Assembly (NCBI GenBank): GCA_001899085.1
Contig: MKVB01000003.1
Coordinates: 40,329-93,115 of the forward strand
Length of the DNA stretch: 52,787 nt
Direction of reading: 5' to 3'
Source: Devosia sp. 66-14
Lineage (GTDB): Bacteria > Pseudomonadota > Alphaproteobacteria > Rhizobiales > Devosiaceae
Both the position numbers and the translations under genes were made by a program. The notes beneath the pieces were generated by a model. That model made no database searches, was not told the DNA's origin, and saw nothing but the letters and a program-made list of their open reading frames with translations. Positions 27,537 through 49,480 of this stretch are shown here, one piece after another (position 1 is the first letter of the stretch; each line of letters opens with the position of its first letter).

Positions 27537-28643
27537 TCAGTAGCCGATGCCGCCTTCGCGTCCGGTCTGGCCGCGGTGGCGCAGGAAATGGTCGGCCAGC
27601 ACCACCGCCATCATCGCCTCGCCGATCGGCACGGCGCGGATGCCGACACAGGGGTCGTGCCGCCCCTTGGTGATGACTTCGGTGTTTTCGTTATGCGTGG
27701 TCACCGTCTGGCGCGGCGTGATGATCGACGAGGTCGGCTTGACCGCGAAGCGGCAGACGATCGGATCGCCATTGGAGATGCCGCCCAGGATACCGCCCGC
27801 CTTGTTCGAGGTGAAGTACGGCCCGGCATTGCCGGCCCGCATCTCGTCGGCATTTTCGGTACCGGTGAGTTCGGCCGCCTCGAAGCCGGCGCCGATCTCC
27901 ACCGCCTTCACCGCATTGATCGACATCATCGCCGAGGCAAGGTCGGCGCTGAGCTTGCCGTAGATCGGCGCGCCCCAGCCGGGCGGCACGCCTTCGGCCA
28001 CCACTTCGATCACCGCACCGACCGAGTTGCCGGCCTTGCGGATACCGTCGAGATAGACTTCCCACTCCTTGGCAGCGACCGGATCGGCGCAGAAGAAGGG
28101 GTTCTGATCCACCTGGGCCCAGTCGAAGCGCGCATAATCGATCTTGTGCGGACCGATCTGCACCAGGCTGGCGCGCACCGTGACATCCGGGATCACCAGG
28201 CGCGCCACCGCCCCGGCGGCGACCCGCGCCGCGGTTTCGCGCGCCGACGCACGACCCGAGCCCTTGTAGTCGCGGATGCCGTATTTCTGATGGTAGGTGA
28301 AATCGGCGTGGCCGGGACGGTACTTGTCCTTGATCTCGGAATAGTCCTTGGAGCGCTGGTCGGTGTTCTCGATCATCAGCGAGATCGGCGTGCCGGTGGT
28401 CTTCAGCTGCCCGTCGCGCTCATCCTCGAAGGCGCCCGAGAGAATGCGTACCTGGTCGTCCTCGCGGCGTTGCGTGGTGAAGCGCGACTGGCCGGGCTTG
28501 CGGCGATCGAGATCGCGCTGGATCGCCTCGGCCGAGATCGGCAGCCCGGGCGGGCAGCCATCGACCACCACGCCCAATGCCGGCCCATGGCTTTCGCCCC
28601 AGGTGGTGAAACGGAACAGGTGACCGAAGGTATTGAAGCTCAT
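27537..28643 (-). CDS. aroC: Chorismate synthase
   Basis: A 368-residue enzyme that turns 5-enolpyruvylshikimate 3-phosphate into chorismate, last step of the shikimate pathway, using reduced FMN. Signatures are complete: GESHGPALG near residue 16, [31 protein letters not shown] and, towards the end, [17 protein letters not shown]. The length matches bacterial AroC. A dispersed palindromic repeat lies upstream (28674-28771). Confidence 0.97.
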
Positions 28644-34535: not shown

Positions 34536-34566
34536 TTGACATCGCCACATTAAACGTTTCACTAAT
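34536..34566 (+). promoter_or_regulatory. Promoter with LacI-type operator (left arm of the ARH/nucleosidase regulon)
   Basis: A -35-like TTGACA (34536-34541) is followed by ACATTAAACGTTTCACTAAT at 34547-34566, with the perfect AAACGTTT core at 34552-34559. The operator covers the spacer and the likely -10. It lies upstream of the first permease gene. An 18-of-20 match in the same orientation to the promoter occurs at the far binding-protein gene (48536-48565). Confidence 0.75.
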
Positions 34567-34588
34567 TGACAACGGAGGGTCGCGGACA

Positions 34589-35458
34589 TTGAAGCCGTTG
34601 TCACAGAGAGCCTATCACGTGCTGTTCGTCACGCCGGCCTTGCTGCTCAGTGTGGCCATCGTGCTGCTGCCGGCGCTGCTGACCTTCGGCGCGTCGTTCT
34701 CGCGCTGGGACGGCGTCTCCGCTCCTGCGTTCGTCGGGCTCGACAACTTTGAGGCGCTATTCGCCGACAACGTGTTCTGGGCGGCGATCACCAACAATAT
34801 CCAGTGGGCGCTGATCTTTCTGACCATCCCGATGGCCATTGCGCTCGTTGCGGCATCGCTGCTGCTGAGCCGGCGCAAATCCGGTGCTGTCTACCAGGTA
34901 ATCTTCCTCCTGCCCTATGTGCTCGCCCCGGTGGCGAACGCGGTGATCTGGCAGAACATCATCCTGTCGCCGGTCTCGGGGCTCCTGGGGTTCGTCTCCA
35001 AGAACTTCATCCCGCTGTCGAGCCCGCTGACCGAGCCCTCGACCGCCCTCTATGCGGTGGCCGGCGTCGATATCTGGCACTTCTGGGGCTACCTGACGGT
35101 GGTGTTCTTCGCCGCCATGCGGCAGACGCCGGAAGAGCAACTCGAAGCGGCGTTTCTCGAGGGCGCCAATGGCTGGCAGGTGTTCTGGAACGTGACGCTG
35201 CCGAACATCCTGCCCACGCTGGGGCTGATGCTGGTGCTGGTCACGATCTTCTCGTTCCTCACCTTCGACTACATCTACCTGATCACCCAGGGCGGGCCGG
35301 CGCGCGCCACCGAGATGCTCTCGACCTATGCCTACAAGTTCGCCTTCACCAGCTTCCAGGTCGGCAAGGCCGCGGCGGTGGCCCTGGTGATGAGCTTTTT
35401 CGGGCTCATCGCATCGATCGTCTATGTGCGCATGAGCCGCGCGAGCCTCGAGGCCTGA
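34589..35458 (+). CDS. CUT1-type ABC transporter permease (MalF-like)
   Basis: A 289-residue inner-membrane subunit with about six helices and an EAA loop (LEAAFLEGANGWQVFWNVTLP) for the ATPase. It starts at a TTG (34589) behind GGAGGG. It opens the rightward operon: the second permease begins one base past its stop. The promoter carries the AAACGTTT operator. Its binding protein is encoded 12 kb away at 47139-48455 under a matching operator. Substrate unknown; nucleoside- or N-glycoside-like from neighbours. Confidence 0.92.
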   Translation: MKPLSQRAYHVLFVTPALLLSVAIVLLPALLTFGASFSRWDGVSAPAFVGLDNFEALFADNVFWAAITNNIQWALIFLTIPMAIALVAASLLLSRRKSGAVYQVIFLLPYVLAPVANAVIWQNIILSPVSGLLGFVSKNFIPLSSPLTEPSTALYAVAGVDIWHFWGYLTVVFFAAMRQTPEEQLEAAFLEGANGWQVFWNVTLPNILPTLGLMLVLVTIFSFLTFDYIYLITQGGPARATEMLSTYAYKFAFTSFQVGKAAAVALVMSFFGLIASIVYVRMSRASLEA

Positions 35459-35459
35459 C

Positions 35460-36293
35460 ATGCAGACCAGCGCATCCCCCCTCTCCCGTACGCTCGCCAA
35501 CGTTTTCCTCATCGGCGCGGTGCTGGTGGCGCTGCTGCCGCTGGCGCTGGTGGCGCTCAACGCCTTCAAGCCGCATACGGCGATCGTCGCCAACCCGCTG
35601 AGCCTGCCCGAGAGCCTCAGCCTCGACAACTTCGCCCGAGCCTGGAACGGCGGCAAGTTCTCGATCGGCATCGTCAACTCCCTGCTGCTGAGCGGCACCA
35701 CGACGCTGATCACGCTCGCCTTTGCATCGCTCGCCGCCTTCGCCCTGGCGCGGCGCAAGATCCCCGGCTGGCAACTGATCACCATCTACTTCTTGTGCGC
35801 GACGACGGTGCCGATCCAGCTGTTCCTGTTCCCGCTCTACTTCGTCTACGCCAAGCTGGGGATCGTGGGGAATTTCGCTGCGACGTCGCTGATCCTCGCC
35901 GCCATCAACCTGCCGATCTCGATCTTCCTGTTGCGTGCCTACGTCATTTCGATCCCGCAGGATGTCGACGATGCCGCGTTCATGGATGGGGCCAATCCGC
36001 TGCAGACGTTTCTGCACGTGATCCTGCCGCTGATGCGCCCGGGCCTGATCACCGTGGCGATCATCGTGTTCCTCAACTCCTGGAACGAGTTCCTGATCAC
36101 CTCGACCTTCCAGAAGGGGCGATCCAACATCACCATGACGCTGGGCTACCTGTCGATGAACGGCACCTACGCCACCGACCAGGGCGCGCTGATGGCCGGC
36201 GCCTTCATCCTGGTCGCCCCGATCATCGTCTTCTTCCTGCTGCTGCAGCGCTTCTTCATCTCCGGCATGACCTCCGGCGCCGTCAAAGGATAG
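35460..36293 (+). CDS. CUT1-type ABC transporter permease (MalG-like)
   Basis: A 277-residue membrane subunit with the EAA loop DDAAFMDGANPLQTFLHVILPLMRPG. The ATG lies one base after the stop of the first permease, and the ARH gene follows after a three-base gap with AAAGGA inside the end of this gene. Together with the MalF-like subunit it forms the channel, powered by the ATPase encoded at 38447-39526. Confidence 0.92.
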   Translation: MQTSASPLSRTLANVFLIGAVLVALLPLALVALNAFKPHTAIVANPLSLPESLSLDNFARAWNGGKFSIGIVNSLLLSGTTTLITLAFASLAAFALARRKIPGWQLITIYFLCATTVPIQLFLFPLYFVYAKLGIVGNFAATSLILAAINLPISIFLLRAYVISIPQDVDDAAFMDGANPLQTFLHVILPLMRPGLITVAIIVFLNSWNEFLITSTFQKGRSNITMTLGYLSMNGTYATDQGALMAGAFILVAPIIVFFLLLQRFFISGMTSGAVKG

Positions 36294-36296
36294 TCC

Positions 36297-38444
36297 ATGA
36301 ACGTCCGTGTCTCCCCCACCCCGCTCACCGCCGTCGCCGAAAGGACCTATGCCGGCGTCCTCGGCAAGCTGATCGGCGTCTATCTCGGGCGTGCCGTCGA
36401 AGGCTGGACCTACGAGGCCATCCGCGACACCTTCGGTGAAGTCGAAGACTATGTGAACCACCGGGTGAACTGGCCGCTGATCGTCCCCGACGACGATATC
36501 TCGGGCACGTTCCTGTTCTATCGGGCGCTCGAGGATAACGGCTTTCCCGCCGACATCTCCGCCAAGGCGATCGGCGACACCTGGCTCAACTACATCGTCG
36601 AAGACAAGACGGTGCTCTGGTGGGGCGGTCTCGGCCGCTCGACCGAGCACACCGCCTATCTCCGGCTCAAGCACGGCATCGCGGCCCCGGCCAGCGGTTC
36701 GATCGCCATGAACGGCAAGGGCATGGCCGAGCAGATCGGCGCCGAGATCTTCATCGACACCTGGTCGATGGTGAACCCGTCCGATCCCGACCGGGCAGCA
36801 GCCATGGCCCGCGCCGCCGGCTCGGTCAGCCATGACGGCGTGGCGGTGGAAGCGGCCTGCCTGCTCGCAGCCATGCAGGCGGCGGCCTATGACGAGCGCG
36901 ATATCGACAAGCTGCTCGACCTCGGCCTTCGCTACTCGCGGAGCAACGAACTCAACGGTGTCATCGCCGACGTGCGCGAACAATGCGCCAAGGCAGGCGA
37001 CGACTGGCGCGCCGTGCGGCACTGGTTGGGCGCCAACCACGGCTATGAACGCTACCCGGGCAATTGTCCGATGGTGCCCAACCATGCGCTGCTGATCGCC
37101 TCGTTCCTCCTGGGTGGCGACGACTTCCAGAAGGGGCTGAAGATTGCCGTCTCCTCGGGCTGGGACACCGATTGCAACGCCGGCAACCTCGGCGCCTTGA
37201 ACGGCATCCGCCTCGGGCTCGCGGGCCTCGAGACCGGCCCGGACTTTCGCGGACCGGTGGCGGACCTGATGTATGTGGTGGGCGCCGATGGCGGCGAATG
37301 CGTCACCGATGCGGTGATCGAGACCCGCCGCGTGCTGCGCAGCGCTGCGCAGCTCAGGGGCGAAAGCTACGCCGCCCCGGCAAGCCGCTTCGCCTTCGAG
37401 TTTCCGGGCGCCGTGCAGGGCTTTGCCCGCTGTCCGCTGCACCAGGGACGCCAGGCGATCACCAGTGTCGGCAACCTCAATACGTCAAGTGCGGCCAACG
37501 GGCTGGAGCTCAGCTTCGAGGGCTTGGCAGCGGGGGTGACCGGGGCGGTTTCGGTGCCCACCTTCATCGATCCCAAGCCGCGCGGCGTGTCGGACACCTC
37601 GTATTTCGAGGTGATCGCCAGCCCGACGCTCTATGCCACGCAGACCGTCACCGGCACCATCCGCGGCTTCGAAGCGGTCAACCCGAAGGCGCGCTTCTTC
37701 ATCCACTATTTCGACGAGACCGATCAGCTGGCCCGGCTCGACGGCGCGTGGATCGAGATCGCGCAGGGCGACAACCCGGTCGCCTTCAAGGTGCCCGATA
37801 CGGGTGGGCGGCCGATCCATCGGCTTGGTCTCGAACTCTCGGCCGAACACCGCCTGTCGGGCCGGATCGCCATCATCTCGCTCGACTGGACCGGCGCTCC
37901 GGAAAACCTGACCTTCGGAAGCTCGAAGGAGCTGACGCCGCGGCTCACGCCCTGGGATACCACGACGTTCTGGACCAAGCAGTTCGTGTCGTCGGCCAAG
38001 CACTGGGCGACCGACATCTACAACACCTTCACCCTGTCGCATCCGGACAGTAACGGCGTGATCACCTTCGGCACGCGCGACTGGAGCGACTATGCCATCG
38101 CCTCCGAACTGGTGATCGAGCTGCACGAGATGACGGGACTTGTGGTGCGCGCCCGCGGCCACCGCCGCTACTATGCGGGTGTGGTGCATGACGGCAAGGC
38201 GTCGATCGTGCGCCGCCGGGACGACCAGCTCGACATCCTCGCCTCGGTGCCGTTCGACTTTGTGCCGAACAGCCGGCAGCGGTTCGAGGTCAGCGCCGTG
38301 GGCGACCGGATCAGCCTCACGATCAATGGCAAGCCGATCGTCGAGGCGGTCGATGCGTCCTACCCATCTGGCGGCGCCGGCTTCCTGATCGAGGGCGGCA
38401 CGGTGCCGGCACTCGGGCTCAGCGTTCGCCGGATCGGAGACTGA
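36297..38444 (+). CDS. ADP-ribosylglycohydrolase-fold (ARH/DraG) protein with C-terminal beta-sandwich region, copy 1
   Basis: A 715-residue protein. The first ~340 residues are ARH-like: the metal sites read PDDD at 64-67 (in place of the usual TDDT) and GWDTDCNAGN with Asp290 and Asp292. ARH enzymes use two Mg ions to cut N- or O-ribosidic bonds of ADP-ribose. The C-terminal half appears to contain concanavalin/LamG-like beta-sandwich modules; RDWSDYAIASELVIE and GHRRYYAGVVHD are shared with copy 2. No signal peptide is visible. It sits between the permeases and the ATPase. The true substrate may be another N-glycoside, since relatives occur in sugar-transport operons. Confidence 0.85.
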   Translation: MNVRVSPTPLTAVAERTYAGVLGKLIGVYLGRAVEGWTYEAIRDTFGEVEDYVNHRVNWPLIVPDDDISGTFLFYRALEDNGFPADISAKAIGDTWLNYIVEDKTVLWWGGLGRSTEHTAYLRLKHGIAAPASGSIAMNGKGMAEQIGAEIFIDTWSMVNPSDPDRAAAMARAAGSVSHDGVAVEAACLLAAMQAAAYDERDIDKLLDLGLRYSRSNELNGVIADVREQCAKAGDDWRAVRHWLGANHGYERYPGNCPMVPNHALLIASFLLGGDDFQKGLKIAVSSGWDTDCNAGNLGALNGIRLGLAGLETGPDFRGPVADLMYVVGADGGECVTDAVIETRRVLRSAAQLRGESYAAPASRFAFEFPGAVQGFARCPLHQGRQAITSVGNLNTSSAANGLELSFEGLAAGVTGAVSVPTFIDPKPRGVSDTSYFEVIASPTLYATQTVTGTIRGFEAVNPKARFFIHYFDETDQLARLDGAWIEIAQGDNPVAFKVPDTGGRPIHRLGLELSAEHRLSGRIAIISLDWTGAPENLTFGSSKELTPRLTPWDTTTFWTKQFVSSAKHWATDIYNTFTLSHPDSNGVITFGTRDWSDYAIASELVIELHEMTGLVVRARGHRRYYAGVVHDGKASIVRRRDDQLDILASVPFDFVPNSRQRFEVSAVGDRISLTINGKPIVEAVDASYPSGGAGFLIEGGTVPALGLSVRRIGD

Positions 38445-38446
38445 CC

Positions 38447-39526
<1,080 letters not shown>

Positions 39527-39545
39527 GACTGGCTGGGGGCAGGAA

Positions 39546-40580
39546 ATGGGGCGCCCGCCGACAATGAGAAAGTCCGCGACGATCCGTGACGTGGCGCGGG
39601 AGGCCAAGGTCTCCATCGCGGCGGTGTCGTATGCGCTCAACGGCGGCGGCACGATCGGCGAGGAAGTGCGCGCCCGGGTGCGCGAAGTGGCGCAGCAGCT
39701 CGGCTACCGCCCGAACCGCTCGGCGCAGGCGGTGCGCACCGGCAAGAGCATGACGCTGGGCCTGGTGCTTCCCGACCTCAACAACCCCTATTACCCGGCC
39801 CTGGCGCAGAGCTTCGAGCGCGCCGCGCGGCAGGCCGGCTATACCGTGGTGCTGATCGACACCTCGGGCCATGTCGACGAGGAGGTGCAGGGCATCCGGC
39901 GCCTCGAACAGCATGGCGTCGAGGGCGTGGTCTGGTGTCAGACGGCGGGGCCCGACGAGGTCGTCAGCTCGGACTATTCGGTGCCCATCGTGGTGATCGG
40001 CACACCCAGCCTCAGCGTCGACAACGTCACCACCAAGGACTACGAGGGCGGCCAGTACCTGGCGCGGCACCTGGTGGAAATGGGGCATACCCGTATCGGC
40101 ATGCTGACGGCGGCGAGCGTGCTCCCCAGCAAGGACGACCGGCGGCTCGGTTTCATCGAGGCGCTGGCAGGGCATGCCACGGTGATGTGGGAGGAAAAGG
40201 CGCCGTTCGCCATCGACCTGCCCGAACGCATCCGCGCTGCCCTCGAGCGCCGGGACGTCAGCGCGGTGATGTGCGGCAACGACCTGATCGCGGTCGGCGT
40301 GCTGCGCGCCGCCCGCCAGCTCGGCATCCAGGTCCCGACCGAGCTGTCGGTCGTCGGCTTCGACGACATCCCCTGGGCCTCGATCGTCGAGCCGGAACTG
40401 ACGACAGTGCGCCAGCCGGTCTCGGAGATGGCGGCCGTGGCGCTCACCCTGCTGCTCGACCGGATCGCCGAGCCGAGCCGCGCGGTGCGCCACTTCAAGG
40501 TCGGGGTCGAGCTGATCAAGCGCCAGAGCGTCGCCGAAGCACCGGTTTCCTGGGGCTGGCGCAAGATCGGCCGCAGCTAG
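39546..40580 (+). CDS. LacI-family transcriptional regulator of the split ARH/nucleosidase regulon
   Basis: A 344-residue repressor. The helix-turn-helix (TIRDVAREAKVSIAAVSYALNG) follows a short basic N-terminus; the sensor domain contains LVLPDLNNPYYPALAQSFERAA and VVGFDDIPWASIVEPELTTV. It is the last gene of the rightward operon and lies beside the convergent end of the leftward operon. Its probable operators, the AAACGTTT sites at 34547-34566 and 48536-48555, flank both arms, so one regulator would coordinate them. The effector is probably the transported compound or its product. Confidence 0.92.
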   Translation: MGRPPTMRKSATIRDVAREAKVSIAAVSYALNGGGTIGEEVRARVREVAQQLGYRPNRSAQAVRTGKSMTLGLVLPDLNNPYYPALAQSFERAARQAGYTVVLIDTSGHVDEEVQGIRRLEQHGVEGVVWCQTAGPDEVVSSDYSVPIVVIGTPSLSVDNVTTKDYEGGQYLARHLVEMGHTRIGMLTAASVLPSKDDRRLGFIEALAGHATVMWEEKAPFAIDLPERIRAALERRDVSAVMCGNDLIAVGVLRAARQLGIQVPTELSVVGFDDIPWASIVEPELTTVRQPVSEMAAVALTLLLDRIAEPSRAVRHFKVGVELIKRQSVAEAPVSWGWRKIGRS

Positions 40581-40587
40581 AGCGCGC

Positions 40588-41505
40588 TCAGCACCCCATC
40601 GAAGGCAGCCAGTATTTCTTGCCGGCGGCAGCGCGCTTCTTGTCCATGCGGTCGAGCAGGGCGCAGCCCTTGAGCGCCACGTCGATCGCCTTGGCGTGCC
40701 CCGCGCCGTGGCTGAACTCGGCATTGGTGATGACATTGTCGGCCACCGAACACACCGAACCGCCGCGGAAGCCGTAGAGCGCGGCGAGCGTCACCACCGC
40801 CGCCGATTCCCGGTCGCCGTTGAGCACGCCGGCGCGGTTATAGGTCGCCAGCATTTCGATGTTCCAGGGCTGCAGGTAGCCGCCGACGCCGGGCCGGCCG
40901 ACGCCGGCGAAATCGCTGTCGACCGACAGGGTGACGCCGACATGGTAGTCGGCGCCGAGCTCGTCGGCTGCCTGCGCCATGGCGGCCACCACTTCATAAT
41001 GGCTGGTGGCCGGGAAGGCGCGATCGACATAGGCGCGGGTCATGCCTTCCTCGCGCACTACACCCGAGGACACCACGATGTCGCCCGGCTTCACATCGGT
41101 GCCGACGCCGCCCGAGCCGCCGACGCGCAGATAGGTGTGGGCGTTGGAGAACTCCATGAAATCATAGAGCAGCAGTTCGGCCTCGGACGAGCCGCTGCCA
41201 CCCGAAACGACGGTGATCTTCGCGCCCTCATAGGTGCCCGATATCGAGGTGAACATGCCGGATTCCCCGATCAGTTCGGCTCCCTCGAGGTACTGTCCGA
41301 TATGGGCGGTCGGATCGCCGGCATAGGCGATCAGTGGGTCGCGCACCGTCACCAGCACGAAGTCGCCGACCTTGTCGGGGTCGATGCGGGTCATCGCCGG
41401 GCGACCTTCCACCATCAGGCCGCGATGCGGGACGTTGTTCCAGTAGGCGTAGCGCTCGTGGATCTGCTTTAGGGCGGCGCGGCGCGCCACCTCGTCGCGG
41501 GACAT
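40588..41505 (-). CDS. Nucleoside phosphorylase/nucleosidase superfamily protein (PNP_UDP-like)
   Basis: A 305-residue protein of the phosphorylase fold. Visible blocks are ITVVSGGSGSSEAELLLYDFME, LRVGGSGGVGTDVKPGDIVVSSGVVRE and, near the end, the acidic motif followed by GFRGGSVCSVADN. This resembles uridine phosphorylase rather than purine phosphorylase. It would split an N-glycosidic bond in a nucleoside, with or without phosphate. AGGAG precedes the ATG. It is the last gene of the leftward operon, meeting the LacI gene seven bases away. Confidence 0.82.
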   Translation of the reverse strand: MSRDEVARRAALKQIHERYAYWNNVPHRGLMVEGRPAMTRIDPDKVGDFVLVTVRDPLIAYAGDPTAHIGQYLEGAELIGESGMFTSISGTYEGAKITVVSGGSGSSEAELLLYDFMEFSNAHTYLRVGGSGGVGTDVKPGDIVVSSGVVREEGMTRAYVDRAFPATSHYEVVAAMAQAADELGADYHVGVTLSVDSDFAGVGRPGVGGYLQPWNIEMLATYNRAGVLNGDRESAAVVTLAALYGFRGGSVCSVADNVITNAEFSHGAGHAKAIDVALKGCALLDRMDKKRAAAGKKYWLPSMGC

Positions 41506-41573
41506 GGGGTAACTCCTCGGAACAGGGGAAGCCGGCGCCAGGCGTCGGCTCCAGGGATACTGGCGCGCCCTGA

Positions 41574-43634
41574 CTAGTGCACGGCGTGGACGAGGAAACC
41601 ATCGGCGACGATGGTCCCCTTCTCGACGATGAAGCCGGCGCTGCCGCTGCTGAAGGTGGCGTCGGTGGCCTCGCCGGCCGGGCGGCCATCGACCACGAGG
41701 CTCAGCCGGTCACCTGATACGGTCAGCTTGAGGTCGCGCTTGCCTTCGGCGCCGACCTCTACCGGAACGCGCGACAGCACCTCAACCTCATCGTCATAAC
41801 GCCTTATGATCAGCGCCTCGCGGCCGCGCAGCATGCCGGCATAATAGCGGCGGTGACCACGAGCCCGGGCCACCAGGCCAGCGCCGTCATTGATCGAGTA
41901 GTCGAGGGAGCTGGCAACCGAGTAATTGTCCCAGTCGCGGCTGCCGGTGGTGGCGACACCGTTCTCATGCGGGTGCGAAAAGCACAGCGTGTATTTGAAA
42001 TCCGGCGCGAAGTGCCTGGCCGAGCTCACCCAGGCGCGAGTCCAGAACGGGGTGAGGTTCCAGATCGATTTGACCAGCATGCCCTTGGTTTCAAAGGCGA
42101 CCGGCGCGCCCGACCAGTCGACCGATTTCACCGTCACGGAGCCGTCGAAGCGGCCGTCCGAGCCGAACTCGATTCCCAGCCGGTAGAGCGGCAGACCGTT
42201 GGTGTCGGGCACCAGCCAGGTCAGCGTCCCCGCATCGGACCATTCGCCCTCGATGCGCTGGATGGCATCGTCGCGGTCGTAGATCAGGGCGTAGAGACGC
42301 GCCTTGACCCCGGCCGGCCGATCGATGACAGCCGTCACGGTCTGCCCCGGATAGAGCGTCGGGCTCGCCACCATGGCGAAGCTCGACTGCGCCGCAAACG
42401 GCTCGACGAACACCGGGGTCGACACCGAGCCGGTGACGCCGAGCGACAGCCCGCTGAGCTCGACCGCCAGCCCGGCGCCGGCATTGCCGAGCCGCAGCGC
42501 CGCCTGCCGGCCGACATGGCGCGGGCAGAGCGCAAAGCCCTGCGTCGCACCGGGGTAGTCGAAACCGTATTTCGGACGGGCCGCAGGAGCCGGCTCATCG
42601 TTGAGCGCATTGGCCGCCGCGACGATGCCGCGGGTCTGCTGCACCGCGTCGGTGATGCCGGCGGCGCCGTCGGCGGTGACCACATACATGAAGTCGCTGA
42701 CCGGGCCGCGCAGGTCGGGGCCCTGGTCGAGGGCGGCAAGCCCGAGCCGCACGCCGTTGAGGCAGCCGACATTGCCGGCATTGCAGTCGGTGTCCCAACC
42801 GGCAGTGGTGGCGATCTTCAGCGAGCGGCCGAAATCATCGCCGGCCATCATCAGGGCCATCAGCACGATGGCGTGGTTGGGGATCATGTGGCACGGCCCG
42901 TCATAATGGGCGTAGCCGTGGTTGCCGGCGATCCAGGCGCGCACCTCATGCCAGTCGTCGGTCTTGGCGCACTGGTTGCGGAGCTGGTCAACGACGCTCA
43001 GCAGCTGGTTGTTGCTGACATATCCGAGGCCGGCATCGAGCAGCTTGTCGACGTTCCGCTCCGAGAACGCCATCGCCTCCATGGTGCCGAGCAGCACGGC
43101 CGCATCGAGCGCCACGCCGTCATGGCTGACGGAGGCGGCGGCGCGCACCATCTGCGCCGCCCGATCCGGATCGTCGGGGTTGGCCAGCGCAAAGGCGTCC
43201 ATGAAGATCTGGGCGCCGATCTGCGCCGGAATCCACGGACCGTTGAGCTGGTGCGAACCGGTGAGCGGTGCCTTGATGCCGTTCTTGAGATGCAGGAATG
43301 CCGTGTGCTCGGTGGAGCGCCCGAGGCCGCCCCACCACAGGATGGTCTTTTCCTCGATGATGTAGTTGAGCCAGGTCTTGCCGACGGTGTGCGGGTCGAG
43401 GTGCTTGGGGTAGCCATTGTCCTCGAGCGCCCGGAAGAAGGCGAAGGTGCCCGAGATGTCGTCGTCGGGCAGCATGATCGGCAGGTTCATCTTGCCATTG
43501 ACGAAGTAATCCACCTCGCCATGCGTCTCGATGATCCGCTCATACGACCAGCCCTCGACCGGCCTGCCATGATAGACGCCGAGGATCTTGCCCAGGACGC
43601 CGGCATAGATCTTTTCTTCGGTCGCGCGGTCCAT
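41574..43634 (-). CDS. ADP-ribosylglycohydrolase-fold (ARH/DraG) protein with C-terminal beta-sandwich region, copy 2
   Basis: A 686-residue paralogue of the protein at 36297-38444, collinear over its length. The metal motifs are PDDD at 56-59 and GWDTDCNAGN (Asp281, Asp283). The two copies share GRSTEHTA, SVSHDGVA, the carboxy-terminal RARGHRRYYAG and more, but differ throughout, so duplication is old. It lies in the leftward operon, three bases after the nucleoside hydrolase stop. Two different substrates or a two-step breakdown would explain keeping both; neither is shown. Confidence 0.85.
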   Translation of the reverse strand: MDRATEEKIYAGVLGKILGVYHGRPVEGWSYERIIETHGEVDYFVNGKMNLPIMLPDDDISGTFAFFRALEDNGYPKHLDPHTVGKTWLNYIIEEKTILWWGGLGRSTEHTAFLHLKNGIKAPLTGSHQLNGPWIPAQIGAQIFMDAFALANPDDPDRAAQMVRAAASVSHDGVALDAAVLLGTMEAMAFSERNVDKLLDAGLGYVSNNQLLSVVDQLRNQCAKTDDWHEVRAWIAGNHGYAHYDGPCHMIPNHAIVLMALMMAGDDFGRSLKIATTAGWDTDCNAGNVGCLNGVRLGLAALDQGPDLRGPVSDFMYVVTADGAAGITDAVQQTRGIVAAANALNDEPAPAARPKYGFDYPGATQGFALCPRHVGRQAALRLGNAGAGLAVELSGLSLGVTGSVSTPVFVEPFAAQSSFAMVASPTLYPGQTVTAVIDRPAGVKARLYALIYDRDDAIQRIEGEWSDAGTLTWLVPDTNGLPLYRLGIEFGSDGRFDGSVTVKSVDWSGAPVAFETKGMLVKSIWNLTPFWTRAWVSSARHFAPDFKYTLCFSHPHENGVATTGSRDWDNYSVASSLDYSINDGAGLVARARGHRRYYAGMLRGREALIIRRYDDEVEVLSRVPVEVGAEGKRDLKLTVSGDRLSLVVDGRPAGEATDATFSSGSAGFIVEKGTIVADGFLVHAVH

Positions 43635-43637
43635 CGC

Positions 43638-44585
43638 TTACTCCAGCACCAGGGTCATCACCAGGTCGAGGAAGCGCCGATAGTCGGCGCTCGAGGCGAC
43701 CTCGATCTCGGGCAGGTGGGCCCAGCCGTGATGGTGGCGGAAATCGGCCACCGTCTGCCCCAGGGTCAGCTCGCCCTTGGTCTCGACCCCGACCCGCGCC
43801 CGGGTGGTGCCGATCAGGCTCTCGTCGATCACCGCTGCAACGGCCATCGAGTCGATCAGCACGCAATAGGATTCGAACCCCCGGCCCTGGACGAACCGCA
43901 CCATCTTCTCGACGATATTGGCTTCGGGACGGGCCGAGGCCTTCAGCGTCGCCAGCTGCTCCTCGGTGAAGTTGATGTCGAAATGCGTTGCGACATCGAG
44001 CCCGACGGCCCGCACCGGCACACCGGACTCGAACACCAGCCGCGCCGCCTCGGGATCGACGAAGACGTTCCATTCGCTCTGCGGCGTGTCGCCGGTGGCG
44101 TTGGCGAAAGCATATTTGTTGAGCCCGAAGGAGCCGGCGATCGCCACCACCTCCTTGACCAGGGGAACGATGTCCGGCTCCTTCATGAAGGCCATCGCGA
44201 GGTTGGTCAGCGGCCCCAGGGTAATGACCGTCACCTCGCCGGGATTGGCCCGCACCATGTCGATGATCTGATCGACGCCGTGCTTGCCGCTCGGCTTCGT
44301 CGTCGGCTCGGGCAGGTGGGTTTCGGCCTGGCCGTCGGAGCCGTGCGAGAACGGATCCTTGGCCAAAGGCCGCGCCAGCGGCTTCTGCATGCCGCGCGCC
44401 ACCGGAATGTCGGTCCGCTTGAGCAGTTCGACGGTCTTGAGCGCGTTCCTCGTCGTCACCTCGATGGGGTAGTTTCCCGCCACCGAGGAAATGCCGAGCA
44501 GTTGCACCGCCCTGGATTTGATCGCCAGGATGATCGCCAGGGTGTCGTCCATCCCCGGGTCGGTATCGATCAGGATCTTCTTCAT
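43638..44585 (-). CDS. Inosine-uridine-type nucleoside hydrolase
   Basis: A 315-residue calcium-dependent hydrolase. The diagnostic N-terminal motif DTDPGMDD (residues 7-14) is complete, and ITLGPLTNLAMAF follows. It hydrolyses ribonucleosides to base and ribose. The frame is open much further upstream, but that is the shadow of the PfkB gene; the ATG at 44585 overlaps the PfkB stop (ATGA). Together with the phosphorylase-family gene downstream it shows that the operon handles nucleoside-like compounds. Confidence 0.92.
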   Translation of the reverse strand: MKKILIDTDPGMDDTLAIILAIKSRAVQLLGISSVAGNYPIEVTTRNALKTVELLKRTDIPVARGMQKPLARPLAKDPFSHGSDGQAETHLPEPTTKPSGKHGVDQIIDMVRANPGEVTVITLGPLTNLAMAFMKEPDIVPLVKEVVAIAGSFGLNKYAFANATGDTPQSEWNVFVDPEAARLVFESGVPVRAVGLDVATHFDINFTEEQLATLKASARPEANIVEKMVRFVQGRGFESYCVLIDSMAVAAVIDESLIGTTRARVGVETKGELTLGQTVADFRHHHGWAHLPEIEVASSADYRRFLDLVMTLVLE

Positions 44586-45505
44586 GCGGTCTGCTCCAGC
44601 ATAGTCGTGAGTTCGGCGACGAGGGCCGCAGCCGCGGCGCGCGTCGTCGCGGATCCCGCTTCGGGCGGTCCGTATTGCGAAATGGCAAGGCGTGCGGCGA
44701 CGGTGCCCATGGTGCCGGCCCGCACCGGGTCGAGGCCCTGCGCCAGCCCCACGAGGGCGGCGCCGCCATAGGCATTGCCGCCGCCGGTGACGTCGATCGG
44801 CGCAACCGGCAGGCTGGGCACGAAGCGGGTCGCCCCGCGGGTGATGACGAAGCTGCCACGCGCCCCGGCTCGGAGGAACACCGTGCCGGTGCCGATGGCA
44901 GCGAGCCGGGCGATCAGCATCGCTTCCTCGGCAGCCCCATAGATCAGCGCCGCCTCCTCGAGGTTGATCGACAGCGCATCGAGCTGGCGGGCCAGTTGCT
45001 CGATCCGAGCGAGGTTCTCGGGCAGGCACGCGTCGAGCGCGATTTCCCACATGGTCAGCGGGCGATGGGCGGCGAGCAGCGGCAGGGTTTCGGCCCAGAA
45101 CGCCGGGTCGAGATTGCGGAAGATGAAGAGGCTGCGGGCGCCCGCGATCACCCTGGCGATGTCGGCGGCCGTCGGCTCGATCCGGCGGAAATGGTCGGCG
45201 CCATAGACCGGCGCCTCGGTGCGGGTGCGCTCGTCGATGTAGCGCATGATGTTGCGCGGCGCGTGGTCGTCGGCGAAGCGCAGGCCACGTGTCGTCAGGC
45301 CATTGCGATCGAGCCAGGGGCCGAAAGTCTGCGGCAGGTCGCGGCCGGTGCCGGTAACCAGTACCGCATCGTCGCCGAACAGCGCCGCCCCGGCCAGCGC
45401 ATAAAGGCCGGCGCCGCCCGGGATGTCGTCGCGGCGGCTGCCGTCGGCATAGACGATATTGTCCATGAGGACCGCGCCGACGATGATGTCGGCAGCTTCA
45501 GCCAT
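44582..45505 (-). CDS. PfkB-family carbohydrate kinase with Asp-to-Asn change in the active site
   Basis: A 307-residue ribokinase-fold protein. N-terminal substrate-side features (DNIVYADG, PGGAGLYALAGAALFG) are typical. The usual GAGD motif, whose Asp is the catalytic base, reads GGGN here (Asn244, in DVTGGGNAYGG); the codon is AAT. So it may be a slow, altered or inactive kinase, or may use another base. It overlaps the YjbQ-family gene by eight bases and the nucleoside hydrolase gene by four. In fructosamine pathways a PfkB kinase (FrlD) partners a SIS deglycase (FrlB), as with the SIS gene here. Confidence 0.85.
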   Translation of the reverse strand: MAEAADIIVGAVLMDNIVYADGSRRDDIPGGAGLYALAGAALFGDDAVLVTGTGRDLPQTFGPWLDRNGLTTRGLRFADDHAPRNIMRYIDERTRTEAPVYGADHFRRIEPTAADIARVIAGARSLFIFRNLDPAFWAETLPLLAAHRPLTMWEIALDACLPENLARIEQLARQLDALSINLEEAALIYGAAEEAMLIARLAAIGTGTVFLRAGARGSFVITRGATRFVPSLPVAPIDVTGGGNAYGGAALVGLAQGLDPVRAGTMGTVAARLAISQYGPPEAGSATTRAAAAALVAELTTMLEQTA

Positions 45506-45902
45506 GGCACTTCACGAAGAACTGGCGCTGCCGCGGCCCGTCGAACTCGTTGAAGAAGATGCCCTGCGAGTGGCCGAGCAGGGGCGCCCCGTCGACGATG
45601 ATCAGGGTCAGGCTGACCCCGACAAGCACCGATTTGACGTGCCCGGCAGCATCCTGCGGGGTGTCGAACTGGTGCTTGAAGTCGATGCGCGTCGGCACCA
45701 GGCGGTTGATGTCGTCGTGCACGTCTTCGAGCCCCTTGGGGTCCCAGAACGAGCTGATCGACAGGCCGGCCGTGGTGTGCGGGACGAACACCACGCACAG
45801 CCCGTCGCGGATGCCGGAAGCGGCAACCGCCTCGCGCACGGTGGCGGTGATCTCATAGGCCGCGTTCGCCACGGTCGAGAGCTTGTGGTTGGAAAGGCTC
45901 AT
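45498..45902 (-). CDS. YjbQ-family protein (UPF0047)
   Basis: A 134-residue single-domain protein. The family core is visible: CVVFVPHTTAGLSISSFWDP, HVKSVLVGVSLTLIIVDGAPLLGHSQGIFFNEFDGPRQRQFFV. An E. coli relative has weak thiamine-phosphate-synthase activity; true roles are unknown. Its ATG overlaps the SIS stop (ATGA), so it is coupled to that gene. A small-molecule or metal-binding accessory role in the pathway is possible. Confidence 0.88.
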   Translation of the reverse strand: MSLSNHKLSTVANAAYEITATVREAVAASGIRDGLCVVFVPHTTAGLSISSFWDPKGLEDVHDDINRLVPTRIDFKHQFDTPQDAAGHVKSVLVGVSLTLIIVDGAPLLGHSQGIFFNEFDGPRQRQFFVKCHG

Positions 45903-47059
45903 TTGCCCGGCTCCCAGATGGCGCTCTGCTGCACGGTGGCGGCGGTCCGGCTGTCGTCCCATGGCGGGTTGCCGCCGCGGCCGTACTCGGCGCCGTCAAG
46001 CGCGCTGAGATGGGCGGCGAGCAGCGCCGGGGCGATGCTGGTGAAAAGCGGCGACCAGCGTTCGGCGATCGCCGGAACGGCGAGGACGGCATGGCCGAGG
46101 CGCTGCGCCAGGTCGGCCGCCTCGCCGCCGCCAACCACCACGAGGCTGCGCCCGAGCTTATGCATATAGGCGATCAGCTCGACCGCCCGACCCTGCGTCG
46201 GGCTGTTGGCCGGCACTACCAGCACCGTGCCGATCTTGGAGGGCGCGTTGTCGAAGTAATTGAGGTGTGTCCACTCCTCGAGGTCGCGCGCCAGCGCGTG
46301 GCGCCCCGCGGCTTCGAGCAGTTTGGCGGCGCCGTACTCGGCGACGGCAAAGCTGGGCCCGCCGCCGACGAATTCCACCAGCTGCCTGCCGGAGATGGTG
46401 GCGGCCACCTCAAGCGCCGGCGCGTCGAGGTCGGCGACCACATTCTCCAGCCTTGCCAGCAGCGACTTGAGTTCGGCGCGCAAGGCCTGCGCCTCGTCCA
46501 TGGTGATCGCCAGCTTCACTTCGCCGAACCGGATGGCGAGCAGTTCAAGCGCGAGGACGGCGAACAGATACGGCCCGACTCCAGGCGCGTTCGGCAGCTC
46601 GGGCACCGGCAGCAGCAGCTTGCGATCGGCAATGCCGGCGAGCCGGCCAGCCTCGTTTTTGGTGACGGCCAGCACTTTGGCGCCGGCGCCGCGCCACAGC
46701 GTCGCCGCTTCGGCGACGCGCGCCGCAGCACCGGAATTGGAGAGCGCCACCAGCAAGGTGTTTTCGAGCTCGCGGCGCGGAAAATGCTGCGACTGGTAGC
46801 GCCCCGCCTCGAGCGGCGGGCGCACCTCGGCGGCAACCTCGGCGTCGATCCAGAAGGACAGCTCGGCGGCCTTGGCGGCGAACCAGGAATCGCCGCTGCC
46901 GGTGAGCACCACGCGCCGGGTGCGATAGATATCGGGCGTTTCGACGGCGAGCCGGGCATTCAGCTCCAGCGCGTCAAAGCCCTTGAGCAGCGCGCCAGGC
47001 GTGGCAAGCACCTGCTCGCGCATCGGATTGGACAGTTCCACAACAGACCTCTTGATCAT
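45899..47059 (-). CDS. Double-SIS-domain protein (sugar isomerase/deglycase-like, FrlB/AgaS type)
   Basis: A 386-residue protein with two SIS domains. The first contains VVLTGSGDSWFAAKAAELSFW and LVALSNSGAAARVAEAA, the second FVGGGPSFAVAEYGAAKLLEA followed by HALARDLEEWTHL, which holds the usual C-terminal catalytic Glu/His neighbourhood. No glutaminase domain is present, so it is not GlmS. Related proteins isomerise or deaminate amino-sugar phosphates, or cleave fructosamine 6-phosphates. GGGAG precedes the ATG. It follows the binding-protein gene after a hairpin. Confidence 0.85.
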   Translation of the reverse strand: MIKRSVVELSNPMREQVLATPGALLKGFDALELNARLAVETPDIYRTRRVVLTGSGDSWFAAKAAELSFWIDAEVAAEVRPPLEAGRYQSQHFPRRELENTLLVALSNSGAAARVAEAATLWRGAGAKVLAVTKNEAGRLAGIADRKLLLPVPELPNAPGVGPYLFAVLALELLAIRFGEVKLAITMDEAQALRAELKSLLARLENVVADLDAPALEVAATISGRQLVEFVGGGPSFAVAEYGAAKLLEAAGRHALARDLEEWTHLNYFDNAPSKIGTVLVVPANSPTQGRAVELIAYMHKLGRSLVVVGGGEAADLAQRLGHAVLAVPAIAERWSPLFTSIAPALLAAHLSALDGAEYGRGGNPPWDDSRTAATVQQSAIWEPGK

Positions 47060-47090
47060 CGATCTCCCGGCGCCGCAGGCCGGAAGGGGG

Positions 47091-47125
47091 GACGCGGACG
47101 ACCTGGGAGGATGGCCGTCCGCGTC
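47091..47125 (-). other. Stem-loop between binding-protein gene and SIS gene
   Basis: GACGCGGACG (47091-47100) pairs perfectly with CGTCCGCGTC (47116-47125) around a 15-base loop, with no T-run. It lies just past the binding-protein stop, as in the fructan operon (5043-5067). It probably stabilises the upstream message. Confidence 0.5.
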
Positions 47126-47138
47126 TGAGCCAAGCCAA

Positions 47139-48455
47139 CTAGAGGGACGGCTTGGGGAGTTCCTGCACCAGGCCCTGCGCCTTCTCGTCGGCGTAGGTGG
47201 TCTCGGCCTTCTTCAGCATGTCGGCGGCGCTCATCTTGTCGAGCCAGACGCTCTCGATGTCCTCGAACATCACCTGGCTGGTGGCGGGCGGGAAGAAGGT
47301 GCCGATCTTGAAGCCGAAGGTGCCCTTGTCGACGGCCGAGGTCATGTCGGCCATGGCCTCGAGGAAGGACTTGGTGAGACCGGTCGCCTCTGGATCGGTC
47401 GGGAACTGCTTGAGCGGAATGCCCCAGTAGCCCGGCCAGACCTTGGCCATCTCGGCGGCGAACTCAGGCGAGAAGATGCGGTCGAGCACCATGGCCGCGC
47501 CGTCCTTCACCTTCGACTTGGCGTTGATCGACAGGGTGAAGGCCACGCCCATATCGTAAATCGGGTAGGGCTGGCTGGCATCGAGCTGCGGGATCGGCGC
47601 GAAGCCGAAATCATCGGCCGTGGCATCCTTGAAGTAGTTGGTGGCCCACTGGAAGCCGATCGAAGGGGCGAAGAAGAAGGGCGACTTCTTCTGGCTCACC
47701 AGCGAAATCGACTCGTCGAAGTTGAGCGAGAAATAGTCCTTGCCGCCGAGATAGCCGGCCTTGAACCAGCGCGCCGACTCCTCGATGGCCTTCTGCATCT
47801 CGGGCGAGTCCCAGCCCTTGCCGGTCGACAGGATGTCGTAGAACTTCGTCGGTCCGACGATGTTGTTGATGAAGATCGAGGCGTAGTTCTCGTTGACCGG
47901 CTGCCAGCCCTTGTTGCCGGTGACCGAGGCGTAGAGCCCGTCGGCCTGGGCCGCCTTCATGATGGTCTCGACTTCCTCGAGGGTCTTGGGCACGGCCCAG
48001 CCTTTTTCGGCGAGCAGCGCCTTATTGTAGAACATGCCGTCCGAGATCAGCGACGGCGGCATGCAGTAGAGGTGGCCGAGCTGCTGGCAGGTATCGAGCA
48101 CCGGCTTCAGCAGCTTGTCGTTCCAGCCGAACTTTTCGGCATAGCCCTCGAGCGGCTCGAGCACGCCGGCTTTGGCGAGCGGCGCGATATAGGACGGACC
48201 GGAGGTGTAGACGAGGTCCGGCCCCTCGCCGGCCAGCACCGAGACGCGGACGTTGTTGTCCACGTCGTTATTGTAGTCCATCTGCAGTTCGTACTGGTCC
48301 TGCGATGCATTGAACGGCTCGACCAGTACCTTCTGAAAGGCTTCCTGCAGGTTGGGCGGCGCGCCCCAGAACCACAGCGTGACCGGTTCCCTGGCCAAGG
48401 CGTTGGACGATACAGCGATCAGAACAGACGCTGCGGCGACGGCAACTTTCCACAT
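47139..48455 (-). CDS. ABC transporter substrate-binding protein (CUT1-type)
   Basis: A 438-residue periplasmic protein with a signal peptide ending at ALA and a mature start REPVTLWFWGAPPN. It heads the leftward operon. The matching permeases and ATPase are in the other arm, 34.6-39.5 kb, and share its operator, so I assign the two parts to one transporter. The ligand is unknown; ARH, nucleoside hydrolase and phosphorylase neighbours suggest a ribosylated compound. Confidence 0.92.
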   Translation of the reverse strand: MWKVAVAAASVLIAVSSNALAREPVTLWFWGAPPNLQEAFQKVLVEPFNASQDQYELQMDYNNDVDNNVRVSVLAGEGPDLVYTSGPSYIAPLAKAGVLEPLEGYAEKFGWNDKLLKPVLDTCQQLGHLYCMPPSLISDGMFYNKALLAEKGWAVPKTLEEVETIMKAAQADGLYASVTGNKGWQPVNENYASIFINNIVGPTKFYDILSTGKGWDSPEMQKAIEESARWFKAGYLGGKDYFSLNFDESISLVSQKKSPFFFAPSIGFQWATNYFKDATADDFGFAPIPQLDASQPYPIYDMGVAFTLSINAKSKVKDGAAMVLDRIFSPEFAAEMAKVWPGYWGIPLKQFPTDPEATGLTKSFLEAMADMTSAVDKGTFGFKIGTFFPPATSQVMFEDIESVWLDKMSAADMLKKAETTYADEKAQGLVQELPKPSL

Positions 48456-48535
48456 GACGTATTCCCCTGTTGATGCCGGCGGGCCGGCACTCTCCCGAGA
48501 CCTCGCTACGATCCCCGCTTGAGGTCCTGAGCGAT

Positions 48536-48565
48536 ATTAGTTAAACGTTTCATGTCGACCGTCAA
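48536..48565 (-). promoter_or_regulatory. Promoter with LacI-type operator (right arm of the ARH/nucleosidase regulon)
   Basis: On the minus strand a TTGACG (48565-48560) is followed by ACATGAAACGTTTAACTAAT (48555-48536). This 20-mer matches the left-arm operator at 18 of 20 positions and has the AAACGTTT core. It drives the binding-protein gene; the divergent gene at 48611 may also respond. Confidence 0.75.
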
Positions 48566-48610: not shown

Positions 48611-49480
48611 GTGGGAAAACTCGTCATCCAGCAGTCGTGGATCAACGATTCCGAGTTCATCGGCTATTTCGTCGCGGCGGCGGAAGGCTTCTATCGCGCC
48701 GCGGGGCTGGAGGTGGTGCACCTTGCAGGGCATGCCGGCCTCACACCCGAGCGCAAGCTGCTCGACGGCACTGCCGACATTGCCCTCAGCGCGCCGGAAT
48801 CGGTGGCGGCGACGGTCCGCGACAGCGGCGCCCGCCTCTGCATCATCGGAGCACAGTTCCAGAAGAGCCCGCTCGGCATCGTCAGCCGGGCCGACGATCC
48901 GGTGCAGAGCTTAGGCGAACTCAAGGGGCGGACGCTTTCGGTGCCGGAGATGAACCGCGCCATGGTCGAGGAGCTGCTTGATCATGCCGGGCTCGAACCC
49001 GCCGACGTGACGATCGTGCCCTACACGCACGATCCGCAGCCGCTGATCGAGAGACGCATTGCCGGCCTGGTCGATTTCGTCGTCGATCCGCAATACCGCC
49101 TGCGGCTCGCCGGGGTCGAACCCCATGCAACGCTGCTCTTCGAGCATGGCGCACCGCTGCCCAACAATCTCGCCGTGGTGACCGAGGCAACCCTGATGGA
49201 GCGTCGGGGCGAGCTGATCAACTGGCTGCACGCCTCGCGGCGGGGCTGGCGCGAGAACTACCTCGACCCGGATTTCTACCCGGCACAGCTGCGCGGCAAC
49301 CCGCTGGTCGAAAGCCGGACGCTGGCCCACGAGATCTATGCCAATGCGGCGTTCCAGCCGCTGGTCGAGACACCTGACGGGATCATGTCGCTCAGCGACG
49401 GACTGATCGATGGGGTGGTGGCCTATCTCGAACGCGTCGGGCTGCCGGTGCACCGCAACCTGTTCACGCCGCTGATCTGA
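48611..49480 (+). CDS. THI5/NMT1-like protein without signal peptide
   Basis: A 289-residue protein of the periplasmic-binding fold, of the NMT1/THI5 type. Blocks include YFVAAAEGFYRAAGLEVVHLAG, ADIALSAPESVAA and GELKGRTLSVPEMNRAMVEELL. Bacterial relatives such as ThiY are exported pyrimidine-binding proteins; this one starts with a GTG at 48611 behind GGAGGAGG and goes straight into the domain, so it looks cytoplasmic. The Cys cluster of yeast Thi5 is not present. It is divergent from the binding-protein operon and may share its operator. A cytoplasmic ligand sensor or carrier is one possibility. Confidence 0.78.
   Translation: MGKLVIQQSWINDSEFIGYFVAAAEGFYRAAGLEVVHLAGHAGLTPERKLLDGTADIALSAPESVAATVRDSGARLCIIGAQFQKSPLGIVSRADDPVQSLGELKGRTLSVPEMNRAMVEELLDHAGLEPADVTIVPYTHDPQPLIERRIAGLVDFVVDPQYRLRLAGVEPHATLLFEHGAPLPNNLAVVTEATLMERRGELINWLHASRRGWRENYLDPDFYPAQLRGNPLVESRTLAHEIYANAAFQPLVETPDGIMSLSDGLIDGVVAYLERVGLPVHRNLFTPLI

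What the first reader, a model, noticed from the sequence alone, without database searches (positions are those of the whole stretch)
34536..48565. Split regulon with matched outer operators: ABC transporter, two ARH proteins, nucleoside hydrolase, phosphorylase, kinase and SIS protein
Two convergent operons end seven bases apart (40580 and 40588), while their start promoters, 14 kb apart, carry operators that agree at 18 of 20 positions (ACATnAAACGTTTnACTAAT) in the same orientation to transcription. The transporter is divided: permeases and ATPase in one arm, binding protein in the other. Only one LacI regulator is inside. The enzymes all suit cutting N-glycosidic bonds. I infer uptake and intracellular breakdown of a ribosylated or nucleoside-like compound (ADP-ribose conjugate, N-ribosyl compound or Amadori product). 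I do not know a described pathway of this composition.
Basis: partly seen in the sequence, partly recalled or inferred. Interest (0 to 1): 0.88.

Follow-up and report, generated by a model that had tools for sequence, protein, structure and literature searches.

The report
Split sugar-nucleoside uptake and breakdown regulon
Two facing gene groups in a soil bacterium appear to share one on/off switch and together encode a complete machine that probably imports a ribose-containing compound and cuts it up inside the cell with an unusual set of enzymes; which compound is still unknown.

Summary
Both arms, the divided transporter and the two operators are real; the operator occurs only at these two places in the 5.7 Mb genome. 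Six genomes carry both arms (convergent in five; on two contigs in the sixth), and AAACGTTT follows a TTGAC in 12 of 12 arm promoters. The seven-base gap is not conserved (-28 to 167). LacI proteins of seven simpler transporter-plus-ARH loci have a different recognition helix, and 5 of the 7 loci have a different palindrome, ATACGTAT. So this is most likely one LacI regulon for import and catabolism; LacI binding was not tested. The substrate is inferred: a ribofuranosyl N-glycoside or disaccharide nucleoside. An ARH-less sister operon in three other genomes keeps PfkB-like, SIS, YjbQ and PNP-like genes, a likely core. Paper searches showed no described pathway of this composition.

The parts
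34536..34566 (+). Promoter/operator of arm 1: TTGACA (-35-like) then operator ACATTAAACGTTTCACTAAT
   Evidence: AAACGTTT present in 6 of 6 homologous arm-1 promoters
34589..35458 (+). ABC permease, MalF/UgpA type
   Evidence: PF00528; best NCBIfam match UgpA, below cut-off
35460..36293 (+). ABC permease, second (MalG-like position)
   Evidence: PF00528
36297..38444 (+). ARH1: ADP-ribosylglycohydrolase domain plus a long C-terminal part
   Evidence: PF03747 1.4e-48; 51% identical to ARH2, Glu and Asp motifs kept
38447..39526 (+). ABC ATPase, UgpC/MalK type
   Evidence: above the cut-off of NF008653 UgpC, 471.6 vs 432 bits
39546..40580 (+). LacI-family regulator; best NCBIfam match RbsR (230 bits, cut-off 382)
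   Evidence: recognition helix VSIAAVS
40588..41505 (-). PNP/UDP-superfamily protein without the Arg of GDPxR
   Evidence: PF01048; alignment A4
41574..43634 (-). ARH2: ARH fold (about residues 2-350) plus CBM66/galectin-like domain (about residues 511-686)
   Evidence: PF03747; AlphaFold model pLDDT 84; Foldseek and VIA-align
43638..44585 (-). Nucleoside hydrolase family protein; metal motif kept, HD motif changed to ID
   Evidence: PF01156 4.4e-84 (frame given to 44594); ATG at 44585
44582..45505 (-). PfkB-family protein with DVTGGGN at the GXGD motif
   Evidence: PF00294
45498..45902 (-).
   Evidence: PF01894, TIGR00149 above cut-off; found in the window and in 8 of 8 related loci searched
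45899..47059 (-). Double-SIS protein, GlmS-isomerase-like fold
   Evidence: PF01380; model pLDDT 85.7; top Foldseek hits are GlmS isomerase domains at 18-20% identity
47139..48455 (-). CUT1-type solute-binding protein
   Evidence: PF01547; PDB sequence matches are mostly sugar-binding proteins, best E 1.3e-09
48536..48565 (-). Promoter/operator of arm 2: TTGACG then ACATGAAACGTTTAACTAAT
   Evidence: AAACGTTT present in 6 of 6 homologous arm-2 promoters

Best explanation
One LacI repressor (39546-40580) binds AAACGTTT operators that overlap the promoters at the two outer ends. It keeps both convergent arms off until an intracellular inducer, probably ribose-like, is present. Together the arms encode one CUT1-type ABC importer (binding protein from arm 2; permeases and ATPase from arm 1) and a cytoplasmic pathway. 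I think the imported compound is a ribofuranosyl conjugate with more than one glycosidic bond (a disaccharide nucleoside or N-ribosyl compound). The two metal-dependent ARH enzymes (ARH2, and by homology ARH1, with a lectin-like C-terminal domain) and the nucleoside hydrolase remove ribosyl groups. The PfkB-like, SIS, YjbQ and PNP-like proteins form a conserved core that processes the released riboside or sugar. In that core the PNP-like protein probably cleaves without free phosphate, as a nucleosidase, and the PfkB-like protein binds rather than phosphorylates sugar. Shown: gene content, operator conservation, conservation of the arrangement, residue losses, predicted folds of ARH2 and SIS. 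Inferred: LacI binding, inducer, substrate, order of steps, every enzymatic activity.
Against: CUT1 importers normally take sugars and oligosaccharides, not nucleosides (established knowledge). No activity, ligand or DNA binding was measured. The nucleoside hydrolase has lost the His of its HD motif in 4 of 4 members. Loss of phosphate Arg in the PNP-like family is not complete: L015 reads GDPAR and L088 keeps an Arg at the second position. The ARH family name does not prove an ADP-ribosyl substrate, and adenine-binding residues were not tested. The SIS model is nearest to hexose-6-phosphate GlmS domains and the binding protein to sugar binders, which fits an amino-sugar substrate as well as a riboside.
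Confidence: 0.5

Rival explanations
1. Amadori (fructosamine or ribulosamine) catabolism: import, PfkB phosphorylation of the ketose, SIS deglycase splits it to sugar phosphate and amine (FrlD/FrlB-like).
For: ABC + PfkB + double-SIS is the known layout of such pathways (recalled); SIS keeps Glu262 and His265, aligned with the Glu and His of NagB-II.
Against: PfkB lacks the catalytic Asp in 9 of 9 members; PMC5931981 states that the Asp of this motif is the catalytic residue (passages seen). It does not explain two ARH, a nucleoside hydrolase and a PNP-like protein.
Confidence: 0.12
2. Hexosamine or oligosaccharide catabolism: CUT1 imports an amino-sugar oligosaccharide; SIS is a GlmS/NagB-II-like deaminase or isomerase; the ARH enzymes are glycosidases of altered specificity.
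For: Binding protein's weak matches are to chitin- and sugar-binding proteins. SIS fold nearest GlmS. An Enterobacter LacI-ARH-SBP trio lies near nag and chiP genes. Lectin-like ARH2 domain.
Against: Nucleoside hydrolase and PNP-like genes have no role in it; LacI nearest RbsR; BMP transporter link of distant SIS relatives.
Confidence: 0.2
3. Salvage of ordinary nucleosides by a redundant set of known enzymes (RihC-type hydrolase, uridine/purine phosphorylase, ribokinase).
For: Family names.
Against: NH, PNP-like, PfkB and SIS score far below every NCBIfam cut-off listed for them, and ARH1 and ARH2 match no NCBIfam model at E 0.001; catalytic residues lost in conserved fashion; it does not need ARH, SIS, YjbQ or a CUT1 importer.
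Confidence: 0.08
4. Two unrelated operons that happen to converge and are co-regulated only because a promoter was copied.
For: Arms end at different distances in different genomes.
Against: The transporter is incomplete in either arm, and both arms with both operators occur together in genomes of four genus labels.
Confidence: 0.04

Closest known systems
Simpler LacI-SBP-permease-permease-ARH(-ATPase) loci of Rhizobiales (uncharacterised here; L042-L046, L055, L056 and alike)
   Same: CUT1 importer plus a two-domain ARH 36-41% identical to ARH2; LacI next to it
   Different: No match to SIS, YjbQ, PfkB, PNP-like or NH in those seven 20-kb stretches; palindrome ATACGTAT in 5 of 7
ARH-less sister operon (L060 Rhizobium leguminosarum pRL1, L090, L091)
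   Same: CUT1 transporter with PfkB (GGGN), SIS, YjbQ and PNP-like proteins, 32-57% identical; the pRL1 region also holds NH and SBP pieces
   Different: No ARH in the operon; a 5-FTHF-cyclo-ligase-like gene nearby in L060 and L090; an RpiR-type regulator beside L090
E. coli yegTUV with regulator YegW/GgaR
   Same: Putative ARH and sugar kinase genes with a putative nucleoside transporter (PMC10819704, passages of abstract and text seen)
   Different: MFS instead of ABC, GntR instead of LacI, none of the other genes; reported effector ADP-glucose
Mesorhizobium huakuii GntR-type-PfkB-SIS-BtpA-BMP ABC cluster (L061) and alike in L121
   Same: SIS (25-30% identical), PfkB, ABC importer
   Different: PnrA/BMP-type importer and BtpA; L061 PfkB keeps the catalytic Asp; no ARH, PNP-like or YjbQ annotated or matched there

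Membership tests
LacI-family regulon | Palindromic operator with central CG at each controlled promoter, conserved with the regulator gene | tested here: met
   12 of 12 promoters in six genomes, only two sites in the own genome
LacI-family regulon | Regulator binds both sites | not testable with these tools
   Only co-variation of recognition helix and palindrome
CUT1 ABC importer | SBP_bac_1, two BPD_transp_1 permeases, MalK/UgpC ATPase with TOBE domain | tested here: met
ADP-ribosylhydrolase (ARH/DraG) | ARH fold with catalytic Glu and metal-binding Asp motifs (roles recalled) | tested here: met
ADP-ribosylhydrolase (ARH/DraG) | Acts on ADP-ribosyl or ribosyl bonds | not testable with these tools
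   No assay
PfkB/ribokinase-family kinase | GXGD motif with catalytic Asp | tested here: not met
   GGGN in 9 of 9 members; D in 3 of 3 comparators; NXXE kept in 9 of 9
PNP/UDP phosphorylase | Phosphate-binding Arg in GDPxR (role recalled) | tested here: not met
   Window reads GDPTA; absent in 8 of 9 subfamily members with this region, L015 reads GDPAR; present in L103, DeoD, Udp
Inosine-uridine nucleoside hydrolase | DTDPGxDD metal motif and family profile | tested here: met
Inosine-uridine nucleoside hydrolase | His of the HD motif near the C-terminus | tested here: not met
   ID in 4 of 4 members, HD in L103 and 6ba0
Double-SIS isomerase/deglycase (GlmS, NagB-II, FrlB) | Double-SIS fold with the active-site Glu and His | tested here: met
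Double-SIS isomerase/deglycase (GlmS, NagB-II, FrlB) | Sugar-phosphate binding loop SxSxxS/T | tested here: inconclusive
   Ser107 and Ser109 kept, Ala112 aligned with Ser of NagB-II
YjbQ/UPF0047 | TIGR00149 above cut-off | tested here: met
   109.6 vs 67.75 bits

The most novel reading that the evidence does not exclude
The locus is a dedicated catabolic route for disaccharide nucleosides such as ribosyl-adenosine (the dephosphorylated repeat of poly(ADP-ribose)). A CUT1 importer takes up the disaccharide nucleoside, ARH enzymes cut the alpha ribosyl-ribose bond, and a core of PfkB-like, SIS, YjbQ and PNP-like proteins, working without kinase or phosphorylase chemistry, cuts and handles the base-ribose part. 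It would be an ARH-based carbon-scavenging pathway and would give YjbQ/UPF0047 a pathway role.
Probability: 0.1. Interest if true: 0.85.

Novelty: new variant of a known kind. Interest (0 to 1): 0.6.

Why it matters
ARH-family enzymes are best known (recalled) for removing ADP-ribose from proteins. Here, and in the simpler loci, they belong to nutrient-import operons, which points to an unassigned catabolic use of the family. The core quartet also gives YjbQ/UPF0047 a conserved partner set, and it includes a PfkB protein with conserved loss of the catalytic Asp, a clear testable case of a repurposed sugar kinase. The locus is 14 kb with one regulator gene and two operators, so growth and binding tests are simple.

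Tried and rejected
Ordinary nucleoside salvage was set low because of the residue losses and low family scores. A thiamine link (YjbQ's model name; an NMT1/THI5-like gene beside arm 2; a 5-FTHF-cyclo-ligase-like gene in L060 and L090) was considered and left open: a frame of 289-290 aa lies at the same place in L014 and L050, but I did not test its identity there. A glycogen/ADP-glucose link by analogy to YegW was not pursued, since only two gene families are shared.

Searches that gave little: papers for ARH + nucleoside hydrolase + ABC + LacI, 0; SIS + nucleoside hydrolase + ABC + LacI, 0; ARH + LacI + regulon, 1, the YegW paper; ARH + ABC + operon + catabolism, 8, and ARH/ribokinase/nucleoside and others, 18, none on such a locus by title and start of abstract, none opened; BtpA/SIS/PfkB, 1 unrelated; YjbQ/UPF0047, 27 papers, 15 listed, none opened. 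ARH2 against PDB sequences: 0 at E 0.001. A class-wide search with the L090 PNP-like protein found the own genome only, 1 of 385, at E 1e-60. A plasmid search with LacI was too broad to use. VIA-align spans two regions of the ARH2 model; the middle part (about residues 350-510) is barely tested.

Rows dropped before counts: G588 (L053) shows only ARH1 and one permease on a 6-kb contig and is not among the six genomes. L091's PNP-like frame starts after the GDPxR region and is left out of the 9. In one search I gave LacI of seven simple loci (those with an adjacent LacI in a full stretch) and one Deinococcus LacI; the Deinococcus one is in no count and its upstream region was not scanned. In one search my TTGAC spacing test was too narrow and missed the L088 permease promoter (13 nt); the 12 of 12 rests on the contexts printed.

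I lowered the probability of the most novel reading from 0.12 to 0.10 for that.
Full report
What is in the sequence. Twelve genes lie as two convergent arms. Arm 1 (+, 34589-40580) is permease, permease, ARH1, ATPase, LacI, with gaps of 1 to 19 bases. Arm 2 (-, 48455-40588) is binding protein, SIS, YjbQ, PfkB, nucleoside hydrolase, ARH2, PNP-like; YjbQ overlaps SIS by 4 bases, PfkB overlaps YjbQ by 8, NH overlaps PfkB by 4. Families come from Pfam and NCBIfam. The nearest named relative in my results is Devosia insulae DS-56 (ARH2 94% identical).

The operators. The 20-mer pattern hits only its two sites in the window at up to 3 mismatches, 0.00 expected. In the whole genome AAACGTTTNACTAAT with up to one mismatch, and AAACGTTTNACT exactly, each hit 2 places, with 0 for the reversed pattern. 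TTGAC lies 8 to 13 nt upstream of AAACGTTT (contexts), so the operator overlaps a promoter-like region and repression by blocking polymerase is the likely mode (inference).

Conservation. Both arms occur in six genomes: the own genome, G582 (L050), G580/Devosia insulae (L014, L051, L052), G790 (L088), G768 and G676. In G580 the arms lie on two contigs that both end beside the convergent junction, so adjacency is not shown there. All 12 arm promoters carry AAACGTTT. The junction gap is 7, 167, 129, 31 and -28 bases in the five loci where it can be read. Frequency: an ARH2 match at E 1e-60 is in 8 of 199 genomes drawn from the order, 2 of 385 from the class and 14 of 19 of the genus, own genome included; these counts include other ARH types. 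A PNP-like match at E 1e-40 is in 16 of 397 genomes of the order, own genome included, of which 4 have the split locus.

Regulator and operator co-vary. Five of the six split-locus LacI proteins read VSIAA(V/A)S in the recognition helix; the sixth (L015) is cut short by my frame caller and reads VATVS. The seven LacI proteins of simpler ABC-ARH loci that I aligned read VSQ(T/A)(T/A)VS, and 5 of those 7 loci have an ATACGTAT palindrome near the LacI start; in L042 and L044 none was found.

Names that do not hold. (a) PfkB: the window protein and eight relatives (six sequences aligned, three by tblastn) read DVTGGGN where PfkB kinases have GXGD; three comparators keep D. A paper states that the Asp of this motif is the catalytic residue (PMC5931981, passages seen). 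The NXXE motif is kept. (b) PNP-like: the Arg of GDPxR is missing in 8 of 9 subfamily members that cover it; L015 reads GDPAR. A second Arg column is lost in 9 of 10, with L088 the exception; no member that covers both positions has both. The Met next to the ribose-binding Glu is Arg in 10 of 10. The Asp aligned with that of DeoD is kept in 10 of 10. Which residues bind phosphate or act as acid in DeoD and Udp is recalled. (c) NH: the metal motif is kept, but the HD motif is ID in 4 of 4. (d) SIS: Glu262 and His265 kept, model nearest GlmS isomerase domains at 18-20% identity.

The core quartet. In L090 and L091 a CUT1 operon runs binding protein, permease, permease, PfkB, SIS, YjbQ, PNP-like; in R. 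leguminosarum pRL1 (L060) the same families lie on both strands, with NH and SBP pieces. No ARH is in these operons; in pRL1 a separate ABC-ARH locus begins about 2 kb past the NH pieces (LacI at 27874, ARH at 33564 of L060). YjbQ is present in the window and in 8 of 8 related loci of both kinds searched for it. PNP-like proteins 44-49% identical sit beside permease and ATPase genes of a different ABC operon in 8 of the 11 stretches L092-L102; in L093, L100 and L102 my frame caller did not show the PNP-like frame that one search places there. More distant SIS proteins sit with PfkB, BtpA and a PnrA/BMP-type importer in L061 and L121. So the quartet looks like a unit that can be paired with different importers, and ARH plus NH look like added steps for a larger substrate (inference).

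Reading. I commit to one LacI regulon for import and breakdown of a ribofuranosyl conjugate: about 0.9 for a single import-and-catabolism regulon, about 0.5 for a ribosyl substrate, about 0.1 for a disaccharide nucleoside in particular. The amino-sugar reading stays open because of the GlmS-like SIS and the sugar-type binding protein. No described pathway with this set was seen in the searches, where I saw titles and the starts of abstracts only; the library holds few subscription journals.

Noticed in passing
window 48611-49480 (+): An NMT1/THI5-like binding protein gene lies divergently beside arm 2; frames of similar length lie in the same place in L014 and L050.
   Followed up: no
L040 and L041 (own genome, contigs C2 and C5): The own genome has two further ABC-transporter loci with ARH genes (about 41% and 35% identical to ARH2); L041 has a second ARH beside the first.
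   Followed up: partly
L092, L094-L099, L101: PNP-like proteins (those aligned, L092, L095 and L098, lack the GDPxR Arg) sit beside permease and ATPase genes of another ABC operon type.
   Followed up: partly
L060:25795-26526 and L090:2120-3115: A 5-formyltetrahydrofolate cyclo-ligase-like gene lies near the ARH-less sister operon.
   Followed up: no
L060:22935-25770: SBP-like and NH-like frames are each in two pieces in this R. leguminosarum plasmid record; decay or sequencing error cannot be told apart.
   Followed up: no
L065 (Enterobacter hormaechei plasmid record): A LacI-ARH-binding protein trio lies between chiP and the glnS/nag genes; no permease gene is annotated in the 22-kb stretch.
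   Followed up: no
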